Assembly (NCBI RefSeq): GCF_003730015.1
Contig: NZ_RJTU01000071.1
Coordinates: 1 to 64,000 of the forward strand
Direction: 5' to 3'
DNA: 64,000 nucleotides
From: Epilithonimonas hominis
GTDB lineage: Bacteria > Bacteroidota > Bacteroidia > Flavobacteriales > Weeksellaceae
The notes beneath the pieces are model-generated. The model did no database searches, had not been told where the DNA came from, and saw only the letters and a list, made by a program, of their open reading frames with translations. This document shows positions 21,868 to 26,083 of the stretch, in pieces. How positions within the stretch are numbered: position 1 is the stretch's first letter; each line of letters begins with the position of its first letter. The position numbers and the translations under genes were made by a program.

Positions 21868-21902
21868 ATTTTGTACAAGATTTATTTCAGATATGTTAAA
21901 CC

Positions 21903-21994
21903 ATAGCCCTGATGGGAACGGCATCCTTTTTTTTGGTTTGGAAAAGCTCAGGCAAAAAAGATATAGTGGACAGCAGGTTCCCGGCTCCTAAAAA
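21903..21994. repeat. dispersed intergenic repeat, copy A
   Basis: About 90 bases starting with ATAGCCCTGATG and ending GGCTCCTAA. The ends pair: AGCC, a five-base bulge and GGGAAC against GTTCCCGGCT, with an inner T8 / A6 segment. A second copy is at 62888-63025. It lies between the convergent EamA and katA genes. Confidence 0.7.
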
Positions 21995-22045: not shown

Positions 22046-23536
22046 TTACTTGGTGTGATTCATTGTATTGGCATCGATATTAACGCCCAATCCCTGCGCA
22101 ACTCTCATTCCTAATTCGATATTTGCACGGAAAAAATGACAAAGCTGGCGGTTGATGATTTCGTCACGTTTCGGTCCGTCAATACCGCTCATGTGACCAA
22201 CAATGTTGTTGACCAAAGCTGTTCTCGCTTCCTGATTTAGTGCTTTTGTATAAAATAATCCCGGCTGTGTATAGTGGTCGTCATCATTTTGATTTCTGTC
22301 ATAATGGGCAACGTGACTATTGTCCAAATCATACTCAAAAGCTTTGTAGGAGCTATCTGGTTCTATGTCGCTGAAGCTGTTTGGATAATAATTTGGTTTG
22401 TCGCCATAATTGGAATCATCTGCCATAGCGCCTCCTCTTTGAAAATTGTTTACGGCAAACGGACATCTGTTGACTTCCAACTGATGAAAATTGACACCCA
22501 CTCTGTATCGGTGCGCATCGGCATAAGAAAATAATCTGCCTTGTAACATTTTGTCCGGGGAAAAACTGATACCGTCCACTAAATGACTTGGTGCAAAAGC
22601 AGCCTGTTCTACGTGAACAAAGTAATTTCTAGGAATTTCATTGAGTTCCATAACACCGACTTCCTGCAATGGGAATTCGTCCTGAAACCAGACTTTTGTT
22701 ACATCAAAAGGATTCCAACGCCATTCTTTGGCTTGTTGTTCGGTCATTGTCTGGATATACAGTTTCCATTTTGGGAAATTTCCGGCTTCTATTTCATTGA
22801 CTAAATCTTCCTGAGCAAAATCCGGATTTTCGCCCTTCATTTTAGTTGCATCTGCATCCGTAAAATTCTTGATGCCTTGCTGAGTTTTGAAATGAAACTT
22901 AACCCAAGTTCTCTCATTTTTATCATTAATCATAGAAAAAGTATGAGATCCGAATCCGTGCATATGTCTGTAGCCGTGAGGCGTTCCTCTGTCCGACATG
23001 AGGATTAGAACCTGATGCAGCGATTCCGGATTGAGTGACCAGAAATCCCACATCATTGTTTTGCTTTTCAAGTTGGTTTTCGGGACACGTTTCTGAGTGT
23101 GAATAAAATCTGGAAATTTTTTGGCATCTTTAATAAAGAAAACAGGTGTGTTATTTCCCACCAGATCCCAGTTTCCGTCTTCGGTGTAGAATTTTAAGGC
23201 AAAACCTCTAGGATCTCTCTCGGTGTCTGCACTTCCCATTTCTCCACCTACAGTTGAGAATCTTGCAAACATTTTACAAGCATTACCAACTTTGGAAAAC
23301 AATTTTGCTCTCGTGTATTGACTTATGTCGTGGGTCACGGTAAAAGTACCGTATGCGCCGGAACCTTTTGCGTGGACTATTCTCTCAGGAATTCTTTCTC
23401 TTACAAAATGAGCAAGGTTTTCCTGTAGAATAAAATCCTGTAGCAAAACGGGGCCTCTCGGTCCTACAGTTTGAGAATCCTGATGCTCGTAATAAGGTGA
23501 GCCAACGGCGTTTGTGAGTTTTTTTCTGTTTTCCAT
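22046..23536 (-). CDS. katA: catalase (clade 3, small subunit, heme-containing)
   Basis: 496 residues. The distal heme segment is RIPERIVHAKGSGAYGTF with the catalytic His, the Asn region is DLVGNNTPVFFI, and the proximal heme Tyr motif is RLFSYADAHRYRVG. Length places it among small-subunit monofunctional catalases that convert hydrogen peroxide to water and oxygen in the cytoplasm. It is divergent from an oxyR-type gene across a 114-base region, the usual arrangement for peroxide control. Confidence 0.97.
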   Translation of the reverse strand: MENRKKLTNAVGSPYYEHQDSQTVGPRGPVLLQDFILQENLAHFVRERIPERIVHAKGSGAYGTFTVTHDISQYTRAKLFSKVGNACKMFARFSTVGGEMGSADTERDPRGFALKFYTEDGNWDLVGNNTPVFFIKDAKKFPDFIHTQKRVPKTNLKSKTMMWDFWSLNPESLHQVLILMSDRGTPHGYRHMHGFGSHTFSMINDKNERTWVKFHFKTQQGIKNFTDADATKMKGENPDFAQEDLVNEIEAGNFPKWKLYIQTMTEQQAKEWRWNPFDVTKVWFQDEFPLQEVGVMELNEIPRNYFVHVEQAAFAPSHLVDGISFSPDKMLQGRLFSYADAHRYRVGVNFHQLEVNRCPFAVNNFQRGGAMADDSNYGDKPNYYPNSFSDIEPDSSYKAFEYDLDNSHVAHYDRNQNDDDHYTQPGLFYTKALNQEARTALVNNIVGHMSGIDGPKRDEIINRQLCHFFRANIELGMRVAQGLGVNIDANTMNHTK

Positions 23537-23616
23537 ATGTTAGATTTTATGATTTACTTCATTGTTGATTTTGCGAAATTCGATAAAAAAAGCTATTTAT
23601 GAAACAAATTAATAAT

Positions 23617-23624
23617 TATATTTG
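23617..23624 (+). promoter_or_regulatory. -7 box of oxyR within the katA/oxyR divergent region
   Basis: TATATTTG, an exact TAnnTTTG match, 26 bases before the GTG start of oxyR. The surrounding AT-rich 114 bases presumably also hold the OxyR operator, which I could not delimit. Confidence 0.45.
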
Positions 23625-23650
23625 TAATAGATAAAATTAATTACTAAGTC

Positions 23651-24604
23651 GTGAATATACAACAGCTAGAATATCTGATTGCAGTAGATAAATATAAACA
23701 TTTTGGAAAAGCTGCACAAGCCTGTTTTATTACCCAGCCAACGCTCAGCGCAATGATTCAAAAGTTTGAAGATGAGCTGGATGTCAAGATTTTTGACAGA
23801 ACCACGCATCCCATAAGAACTACCGATGCGGGTGCAGAAATCATAAAGGAAGCTCAGAAAGTGATCGATTCCGTCATGGAATTAAAGAACAAAGCCAATT
23901 TTCTGAACAATATTCTTGCAGGAAAACTAAATCTTGGGATCATACCGACCGTTTCAAGTTATGTGTTGCCCAATGAAATTTTTTCTTTCCTTAAGAAAAA
24001 TCCTCAGATTGAATTGAATATCAAGGAAATGACGACGGAAAGCATTATAAAAGCTCTAAAATCCGGGGAATTGGATGCGGGAATCATTTCTACACCTTAC
24101 GCTGCGGCAGATGAGTTCTATCAGGATTTTCTTTTCAATGAGGAATTGATGTTATATTCTGCTAATCAGGAAGCTGGAGCTAGGAAAGATTGTTTCGTAG
24201 TTCCTGAGGATATTGATGTGGATAAGGTGTGGCTTTTGGAGGAAGGTAATTGTCTGAGAACACAATTCGAGAACATCTGTCAGCTGAAAGAAAATTCTCT
24301 GAAACCAAGTAATCTCGAATTTTTGGCTTCTAATATCAACACGTTGATTCAAATGGTAGATAAAGTAGGCGGAATTACGATTCTACCAGAAATGGGAGTG
24401 GAGCAACTGTCTGCAGAGCAAAAACAAAAAGTTTCACGATTCATAAAGCCTTTTCCTTACAGGGAAATAAGCTTGATTTACTACAAACCTACTTACAAAC
24501 AGAAAATTATAGATGAGTTGATTTCGGAGATCCGCGTTTCTATGGAAAAACGACTTAACTACTATAAAGATTCTGAAAATTACGTCAGTATCAAACCTGA
24601 GTAA
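23651..24604 (+). CDS. oxyR: hydrogen peroxide-sensing LysR-type regulator OxyR
   Basis: 317 residues from a GTG start. The N-terminal winged helix reads QLEYLIAVDKYKHFGKAA, followed by the LysR substrate domain. Two cysteines at about 201 and 210 (CLRTQFENIC) have the nine-residue spacing of Cys199 and Cys208 in E. coli OxyR, the pair that forms the peroxide-sensing disulfide. Together with the adjacent divergent catalase this makes OxyR the best name rather than a generic LysR regulator. Confidence 0.9.
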   Translation: MNIQQLEYLIAVDKYKHFGKAAQACFITQPTLSAMIQKFEDELDVKIFDRTTHPIRTTDAGAEIIKEAQKVIDSVMELKNKANFLNNILAGKLNLGIIPTVSSYVLPNEIFSFLKKNPQIELNIKEMTTESIIKALKSGELDAGIISTPYAAADEFYQDFLFNEELMLYSANQEAGARKDCFVVPEDIDVDKVWLLEEGNCLRTQFENICQLKENSLKPSNLEFLASNINTLIQMVDKVGGITILPEMGVEQLSAEQKQKVSRFIKPFPYREISLIYYKPTYKQKIIDELISEIRVSMEKRLNYYKDSENYVSIKPE

Positions 24605-24631: not shown

Positions 24632-24662
24632 TTTGAAATCTAAATTATTGTGTGTATTTTTG
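24632..24662 (+). promoter_or_regulatory. metK promoter
   Basis: TTTG at 24632-24635, a spacer of exactly 19 bases, and TATTTTTG at 24655-24662: the textbook Bacteroidota TTTG-N19-TAnnTTTG promoter. Transcription should start near 24667, giving a leader of about 135 bases. Confidence 0.8.
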
Positions 24663-24681
24663 CGGTCGAATTTTGAACAAC

Positions 24682-24762
24682 GGAGGAGAACTTTGACTGA
24701 TTGCAACCTCAATAAAAAATGCTAAAACAGATTTTTCTCTTTTAGTTCCTTTTGCAATCCGT
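24682..24762 (+). promoter_or_regulatory. candidate SAM-II-type riboswitch in the metK leader
   Basis: P1 would be GAGG (24683-24686) with CCTC (24707-24710). Its 3' side is preceded by the conserved TTGCAACC, and after an A-rich loop comes TGCTAAAAC (24720-24728). These resemble the SAM-II core, in which UUGCA-CC closes P1 and GCUAAA forms the pseudoknot strand. Downstream TTTTAG (24740-24745) complements CTAAAA, and TTGCAATC (24752-24759) complements GATTGCAA (24699-24706), so a nested alternative hairpin could exclude the aptamer. The gene downstream makes SAM. Class assignment is by eye. Confidence 0.55.
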
Positions 24763-24802
24763 ATTTTTCAGCCTCAAAAATTAAAAATATAAAAGGAATA
24801 AT

Positions 24803-26083
24803 ATGTCTTATTTATTTACGTCCGAATCAGTTTCAGAAGGACACCCGGATAAAATTGCCGATCAGATTTCCGATGCGCTTATCGATCATTTTTTGGCTTA
24901 TGACAAAAATTCAAAGGTGGCTTGCGAAACTTTAGTTACCACAGGTCAGGTTGTTCTGGCTGGTGAAGTAAAATCAGAAGCTTATCTAGATGTACAGCAT
25001 ATAGCGAGAGATGTCATCAACAAAATTGGATACACGAAAAGTGAATATATGTTTAATGGTGATTCTTGTGGTGTGATTTCAGCAATCCATGAGCAGTCTC
25101 CGGACATCAATCAAGGTGTAGACAGAACCTTGGATGAAACGGACTTCGAAGCCAGAGCCAATGCTCAAGGCGCAGGAGATCAAGGGATGATGTTTGGTTA
25201 CGCCACCAATGAAACTGAAAATTATATGCCTTTGGCTTTGGATCTTGCGCATCAAATTCTAAAAGAATTGGCAGATCTTCGACGAGAAGGAAATGCAATT
25301 CCCTACCTACGCCCAGATGCGAAATCTCAAGTAACAATCGAGTATTCTGATGATCATAAACCAGTAAGAATTGACAGTATTGTTGTTTCTACGCAACACG
25401 ATGATTTTGGTAGCGAAGAAGCAATGTTAGCTAAAATTAAAAAAGATATTATCGAGATTTTAATTCCTAAAGTTAAGGCTAAACAGAAGCCGGAAATTCA
25501 GGAATTGTTCAACGGTGATATCAAATATCATATCAACCCAACTGGAAAATTCGTAATCGGTGGCCCTCACGGAGATACAGGTCTTACAGGTAGAAAAATC
25601 ATTGTAGATACTTACGGTGGAAAAGGTGCTCACGGAGGTGGTGCTTTCTCTGGAAAAGATCCTTCCAAAGTTGACAGAAGTGCAGCATACGCAACAAGAC
25701 ATATCGCTAAAAATCTGGTTGCAGCTGGTGTTGCAGATGAGGTTTTGGTTCAGGTTTCTTATGCGATTGGTGTGGCAGAGCCTTGTGGTCTTTACATCAA
25801 CACTTATGGAACATCCAAACTGGACATCAACGATGGGGAATTGGCAAAAAGAGTTCAGAAATTATTTGACCTAAGACCTTACGCCGTAGAAAAAAATCTT
25901 AAACTCAGAAATCCTATCTATTTAGAAACAGCCGCTTATGGTCATATGGGTAAGGATTATTACGTAGCAGATAAAACCTTCAACAAAGGACATAAAAATG
26001 AGTTGACATTGAAAGATCTTGAGTTCTTCACTTGGGAGAAGCTGGATCGTGTAGACGATGTCAAAAAAGAATTCGGATTGTAA
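24803..26083 (+). CDS. metK: S-adenosylmethionine synthase
   Basis: 426 residues. Signature motifs are [17 protein letters not shown] at the N-terminus, [12 protein letters not shown] in the centre and [16 protein letters not shown] towards the C-terminus. It makes SAM from methionine and ATP. Its leader carries a strong promoter and a candidate SAM-binding element, suggesting feedback control by its own product. A terminator follows 25 bases after the stop. Confidence 0.98.

What the first reader, a model, noticed from the sequence alone, without database searches (positions are those of the whole stretch)
24632..24802. SAM-II-like aptamer with a built-in alternative fold in the metK leader
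Seen: an ideal TTTG-N19-TATTTTTG promoter, then a leader with GAGG/CCTC enclosing TTGCAACC and a later TGCTAAAAC. Known: SAM-II riboswitches close their P1 with UUGCA-CC and use GCUAAA as the pseudoknot strand; metK makes SAM. The new point is that both conserved segments have perfect complements downstream (CTAAAA with TTTTAG; GATTGCAA with TTGCAATC, nested), so a competing hairpin ending before GTATTTTT can form only when the aptamer does not. This suggests control by the gene's own product.
Basis: partly seen in the sequence, partly recalled or inferred. Interest (0 to 1): 0.72.

Follow-up and report, generated by a model that had tools for sequence, protein, structure and literature searches.

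The report
SAM-II riboswitch with remote start-site lock
The metK leader carries a known SAM-sensing RNA (SAM-II), and the RNA after it appears to be a co-evolving switch that, when SAM is bound, base-pairs over the start of the gene for the SAM-making enzyme about 70 bases downstream; that is a different way of working from the one described for this riboswitch class.

Summary
Window 24677-24735 matches Rfam SAM-II long loop (RF01726, 60.4 bits, threshold 44), 67 bases before metK, and the same aptamer is in 23/23 genus and 284/296 family genomes. The aptamer is therefore already known. The competing fold is real: elements that pair with the aptamer core co-evolve with it across 65 genera of the order (native versus swapped partners, z = -8.5; controls near 0). 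Taken alone, the perfect 8-base complement in this one sequence is unremarkable (22% of shuffles reach it); the evidence is comparative. The strand GUUCCUUUUG (24745-24754), lying inside the competing hairpin, is complementary to UAAAAGGAAU (24790-24799) just before AUG. This second pairing also co-evolves (z = -8.2), peaks at the start region, and is absent from 45 metK leaders that lack the aptamer. Best model: SAM stabilises the aptamer, which frees this strand to cover the translation start (OFF); without SAM the competing hairpin traps it (ON). No terminator is supported. Reported SAM-II platforms are direct occlusion inside the pseudoknot or terminators, so this is a new variant of a known kind. 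SAM binding and regulation are untested here.

The parts
24632..24662 (+). Bacteroidota-type promoter TTTG-N19-TATTTTTG; predicted transcription start about 24667
   Evidence: Sequence; matches the TAnnTTTG box at -12 to -5 described for flavobacteria (PMC9723704); TAnnTTTG kept in relatives
24677..24735 (+). SAM-II long-loop aptamer (RF01726), full length
   Evidence: cmscan 60.4 bits versus gathering 44, E 4e-9
24683..24710 (+). P1 hairpin GAGG/CCTC enclosing the conserved L1/core TTTGACTGATTGCAACC
   Evidence: cmscan alignment
24720..24731 (+). Conserved 3' pseudoknot strand TGCTAAAACAGA (Rfam consensus GCUAAAgCAG)
   Evidence: cmscan alignment
24699..24706 (+). Aptamer core GATTGCAA, 5' arm of the competing (anti-aptamer) stem
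   Evidence: Sequence; fold; swap test
24740..24745 (+). Anti-pseudoknot element TTTTAG, pairs with CTAAAA 24722-24727
   Evidence: Sequence; fold; enriched in relatives (Stouffer -4.3 family, -3.5 rest of order)
24745..24754 (+). Sequestor strand GTTCCTTTTG, complementary to the translation start region; overlaps both arms of the competing stems (24745, 24752-24754), so the two pairings exclude each other
   Evidence: Fold of 24736-24830
24752..24759 (+). Anti-aptamer element TTGCAATC, 3' arm of the competing stem
   Evidence: Sequence; fold; co-evolves with the aptamer core
24790..24799 (+). A-rich start-proximal segment TAAAAGGAAT, target of the sequestor (10 pairs including 2 G-U)
   Evidence: swap-test peak at -15..+8 relative to AUG
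24803..26083 (+). metK, S-adenosylmethionine synthetase (426 aa)
   Evidence: ORF; up to 83% identity to MetK homologues

Best explanation
A SAM-II (long-loop) riboswitch that represses translation of metK at a distance through a sequestor/anti-sequestor switch. With SAM low, the aptamer core (GAUUGCAA) pairs with UUGCAAUC and the pseudoknot strand (CUAAAA) with UUUUAG, forming one long hairpin that traps the sequestor strand between its two stems; the start region stays open and MetK is made. With SAM high, the bound aptamer removes both partners of that hairpin; the sequestor strand GUUCCUUUUG is free to pair with UAAAAGGAAU at -13 to -4 of the start codon, and initiation is blocked. Shown here: the aptamer match, both complementarities, their mutual exclusion, their co-evolution, and the absence of the start-region pairing from leaders without aptamer. 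Inferred: SAM binding, the direction (OFF), and translation as the step controlled.
For: Aptamer 60.4 bits, in 23/23 genus, 284/296 family and 101/148 order genomes. Swap tests with one leader per genus: native partners beat partners swapped between genera for the aptamer core (order z = -8.5, none of 20,000 permutations as good) and for the start region (z = -8.2); upstream and coding controls z = 0.9 and 0.0. The start-region signal holds separately in the family (z = -4.4) and in the rest of the order (z = -5.8), and peaks at windows -10..+3 and -5..+8 of the AUG (z = -5.8 and -5.4), gone by +5..+18. Explicit two-sided changes: UUCC/GGAA (g1, g32), UUUC/GAAA (g12, g17, g26), UUUCUAUUG/CAAUAGAAA (g30). 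Two-state folding: start region unpaired 0.56 free versus 0.20 with the aptamer blocked, 0 of 60 shuffles match; 78 genera: switch amplitude 0.092 versus 0.018 in shuffles, Stouffer 9.4. 45 metK leaders without aptamer show nothing (shuffle +0.65, swap +1.5). No terminator. Structure near the start codon tunes translation in Flavobacterium johnsoniae, whose phylum naturally lacks SD sequences (PMC6847099).
Against: No binding, probing or expression data. The folding model blocks the aptamer by hand and cannot treat the SAM-bound pseudoknot energetically. The apo fold leaves the start region only 56% open. The sequestor is not universal: several family genera (g4, g5, g9, g10, g18, g21, g25, g29, g33) and most Flavobacteriaceae-like representatives tested (f3) show none. 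Outside the order the start-region swap test is not significant (13 genera, p = 0.12). Within genus g1 the exact GATTGCAA/TTGCAATC pairing slides or weakens in some species (L020 has lost it). Another set of 45 aptamer-bearing loci gives a weaker result (z = -2.85), and that set may overlap the first.
Confidence: 0.74

Rival explanations
1. Transcription control: the competing hairpin, ending before GTATTTTT, is an intrinsic terminator (or terminator/antiterminator pair).
For: A U-run follows the hairpin by a few bases in this species and some relatives; predicted terminators are common for SAM-II in alpha- and beta-Proteobacteria (PMC2258182).
Against: No terminator-like site found; terminator-like signal is not enriched in 78 leaders (native -0.87 versus shuffled -1.08 kcal/mol, Stouffer +1.5; 1 of 78 at or below -8); the U-run is not directly after the stem and is not conserved; a terminator in the SAM-free state would switch metK on with SAM; it does not explain the co-evolving pairing to the start region.
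Confidence: 0.07
2. Translational OFF switch as in the best model, with the main effect on mRNA through Rho-dependent termination or decay once ribosomes are excluded.
For: Translation block often feeds into Rho or decay (general knowledge); the S. meliloti SAM-II riboswitch alters mRNA stability as well as translation (PMC9373788).
Against: No direct evidence here; it adds to the best model rather than replacing it.
Confidence: 0.1
3. Direct occlusion, as in the metX SAM-II: the ribosome-binding site lies inside the aptamer pseudoknot.
For: It is the textbook SAM-II mechanism (PMC10907184).
Against: The pseudoknot strand ends about 72 bases before the AUG in this leader; the ATG-pseudoknot distance is 67-89 bases in the four leaders printed.
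Confidence: 0.03
4. The downstream complementarities only reflect U-rich/A-rich composition of the leader, and the aptamer acts alone or is inactive.
For: Single-sequence complementarity is not significant (8-base aptamer match in 22% and 8-base start-region match in 13% of shuffles).
Against: Dinucleotide shuffles control for composition and the swap test cancels composition main effects; both are strongly positive, are near null in control segments, and the start-region signal is null in aptamer-less leaders.
Confidence: 0.06

Closest known systems
SAM-II long-loop riboswitch (Rfam RF01726; Weinberg et al. 2010, PMC2864571)
   Same: Aptamer sequence and structure at full model length; Bacteroidota; listed in that paper's table as SAM-II long loops in Bacteroidetes and marine samples
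   Different: The main text read here describes no expression platform for it; its supplement could not be read
metX SAM-II from Sargasso Sea metagenome (direct occlusion; PMC10907184, PMC9373788)
   Same: SAM-II core, repression of translation inferred
   Different: There the SD lies in the pseudoknot strand; here a separate strand after the pseudoknot covers a start region about 60-70 bases further on
S. meliloti metA/metZ SAM-II (PMC9373788)
   Same: SAM-II acting on translation of a start codon well downstream (metA)
   Different: There the SD is inside the riboswitch and is needed for initiation 74 nt away; metZ is predicted to use a terminator. Here an anti-aptamer hairpin and a start-region sequestor are predicted
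Sequestor/antisequestor translational riboswitches in general (PMC2258182)
   Same: OFF logic: ligand breaks an antisequestor pairing so that the sequestor forms
   Different: Not reported for SAM-II in the sources read; the target here is an A-rich start region in bacteria described as lacking SD sequences

Membership tests
SAM-II (RF01726) | Covariance-model score above curated threshold at full length | tested here: met
   60.4 bits versus 44, positions 1-60
SAM-II (RF01726) | Upstream of a SAM or methionine metabolism gene | tested here: met
   metK at 24803
SAM-II (RF01726) | Conserved in relatives at the same locus | tested here: met
   23/23 genus, 284/296 family genomes; 158 loci parsed upstream of metK
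SAM-II (RF01726) | Binds SAM selectively over SAH | not testable with these tools
   Needs binding assay
Direct-occlusion SAM-II | Ribosome-binding site inside the pseudoknot 3' strand | tested here: not met
   Pseudoknot strand ends at 24731, AUG at 24803
Terminator-type SAM-II | Intrinsic terminator downstream of the aptamer | tested here: not met
Sequestor/antisequestor translational platform | Two mutually exclusive pairings, one with the aptamer and one with the start region | tested here: met
   Shared bases 24745 and 24752-24754; two-state folding
Sequestor/antisequestor translational platform | Both pairings conserved by covariation | tested here: met
   Swap tests; not significant for the start region outside the order
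Sequestor/antisequestor translational platform | Ligand-dependent change in start-site accessibility and translation | not testable with these tools
   Needs probing, toeprinting or reporter assay

The most novel reading that the evidence does not exclude
Across Flavobacteriales, metK SAM-II aptamers do not use the direct occlusion reported for the class but repeatedly re-evolve a remote start-region sequestor plus anti-aptamer arm, a general way of building translational riboswitches where no Shine-Dalgarno site exists to be occluded: the sequestor shifts position, length and sequence between lineages and sometimes covers the AUG itself.
Probability: 0.55. Interest if true: 0.62.

Novelty: new variant of a known kind. 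Interest (0 to 1): 0.52.

Why it matters
SAM-II is a textbook direct-occlusion riboswitch. If the model holds, the same aptamer drives a different, indirect mechanism in a large bacterial order, and it shows how a riboswitch can control translation in bacteria that lack Shine-Dalgarno sequences. It predicts specific compensatory mutants.

Tried and rejected
Terminator reading: rejected. Direct occlusion: rejected on distance. Judging the window alone: perfect complements are not rare by chance, so the case rests on comparison. The MAFFT leader alignment (A1) misaligned the P1 and start regions because lengths vary, so column-based pair counts were not used; alignment-free swap and shuffle tests were used instead. 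An anti-P1 element (complement of GAGGAAA) is not enriched in the family overall (Stouffer -0.9; rest of order -3.0). One control segment, 16 nt upstream, reached Stouffer -2.75 against shuffles in the family but was null in the swap test. Anti-SD check of this genome's 16S failed: pattern not found in the assembly. A first two-state run timed out and was repeated with fewer shuffles.

Full report
OBSERVATION. The promoter TTTG-N19-TATTTTTG (24632-24662) fits the TAnnTTTG box at -12 to -5 published for flavobacteria (PMC9723704), placing the transcription start near 24667. Rfam's SAM-II long-loop model RF01726 matches 24677-24735 over its full length with 60.4 bits against a threshold of 44. 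The next gene, 24803-26083, is metK.

THE APTAMER IS KNOWN. RF01726 was described in Bacteroidetes in 2010 (PMC2864571). It is present in 23 of 23 genomes of the genus, 284 of 296 of the family and 101 of 148 of the order, and 158 loci were parsed as lying upstream of metK. Most of the 12 family genomes without it belong to one genus; where the metK leader could be read there (11 loci) I saw no SAM-II leader.

THE COMPETING FOLD. GATTGCAA/TTGCAATC encloses CTAAAA/TTTTAG; the folded segment has MFE -13.5 kcal/mol, z = -3.3, 0 of 200 shuffles. An 8-base match alone would be expected by chance in 22% of shuffles, so I asked whether it is conserved. Using one leader per genus, the downstream region pairs with the aptamer core far better than its own dinucleotide shuffles (Stouffer -10.3 in the family, -13.5 in the rest of the order, -5.8 in the rest of the class). 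Native pairs also beat pairs swapped between genera (z = -4.8, -6.0, -4.3; order together -8.5). The swap keeps every sequence and its composition, so it measures co-evolution. The element slides: family 1 often uses GCAATCA against TGATTGC, whereas family 11 pairs GCCAAATC with GATTTGGC.

THE MISSED THIRD ELEMENT. Between the two arms of the competing hairpin lies GUUCCUUUUG (24745-24754), which pairs with UAAAAGGAAU (24790-24799), immediately before AUG. In relatives the two strands change together: GUUUCUUUUG/CAAAAGAAAU, GUUUCUAUUG/CAAUAGAAAU; in family 8 GCUAUCUU pairs with AAGAUGGC, which covers the AUG itself, and GCUAUUUUC with GAAAAUGGC. Swap tests give z = -4.4 (family), -5.8 (rest of order), -8.2 together; control segments upstream of the aptamer and in the coding region give about 0. 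The signal peaks at -15 to +8 around the AUG and is gone by +5..+18; windows further into the gene (+25 to +58) give small values of -1.5 to -1.9. 45 metK leaders without the aptamer show no such pairing. In the rest of the class it is not significant.

MECHANISM. The sequestor shares bases with both stems of the competing hairpin, so the states exclude each other. Folding with and without the aptamer bases available gives start-region openness of 0.56 (free) and 0.20 (aptamer occupied) in this leader, beyond all 60 shuffles; over 78 genera the switch amplitude is 0.092 versus 0.018 in shuffles (Stouffer 9.4). The sign is the one expected for feedback: SAM present, metK closed. Structure around the start codon tunes translation in F. 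johnsoniae, a member of a phylum described as naturally lacking SD sequences (PMC6847099), so covering the A-rich start region is a plausible way to repress. SAM binding, direction and the translational step remain inferred.

ALTERNATIVES. A terminator is not found here and not enriched in the set. Direct occlusion is excluded by distance. A secondary effect on mRNA level through Rho or decay is possible; the S. meliloti SAM-II riboswitch changes mRNA stability (PMC9373788).

LIMITS. The sequestor is clear in roughly half of the family's genera and in parts of families 2, 7, 8 and 11, weak or absent in most family 3 representatives and in several genera with short leaders. The energy model does not include the pseudoknot. 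The literature search covers open-access full texts only, and supplements were not available. Organism names are not given for the genome set; the nearest named MetK records are Chryseobacterium-like.

NOVELTY. A review classes SAM-II as direct occlusion (PMC10907184) and a survey associates it with terminators (PMC2258182). The generic sequestor/antisequestor logic is known (PMC2258182). No source found describes it for SAM-II or for Bacteroidota metK. I file it as a new variant of a known kind.

Noticed in passing
window 21901-21984 (+): Flavo-1 RNA (RF01705, 57 bits), an Rfam small RNA family, close to the 3' end of the catalase-like gene.
   Followed up: no
window 22046-24604: A catalase-like gene (-) and a LysR/OxyR-like regulator (+) are divergently arranged just upstream of the metK leader (names from reading the translations, not searched).
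   Followed up: no
L035, L039, L040, L063 (genus g21) and L028, L030 (g9): Short SAM-II leaders with no start-region sequestor but with a TTTCCTC-like element complementary to the 5' strand of P1 (GAGGAAA); possibly a different output mechanism.
   Followed up: partly
G201, G210, G214, G221, G230, G231, G253, G258, G276, G287 (genus g20): These genomes carry two RF01726 matches; the gene behind the second copy was not examined.
   Followed up: no
L164-L174: Eleven metK loci of family genomes without an RF01726 match (nine from genus g16): no SAM-II leader seen; in most g16 loci a promoter-like TTAAATTTGCAA lies some 30-50 bases before the AUG, as if aptamer and platform were lost together.
   Followed up: partly
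L094, L098, L103, L107, L109 (family f11): The anti-aptamer element targets a different aptamer segment (GATTTGGC with GCCAAATC), an alternative solution to the same task.
   Followed up: partly
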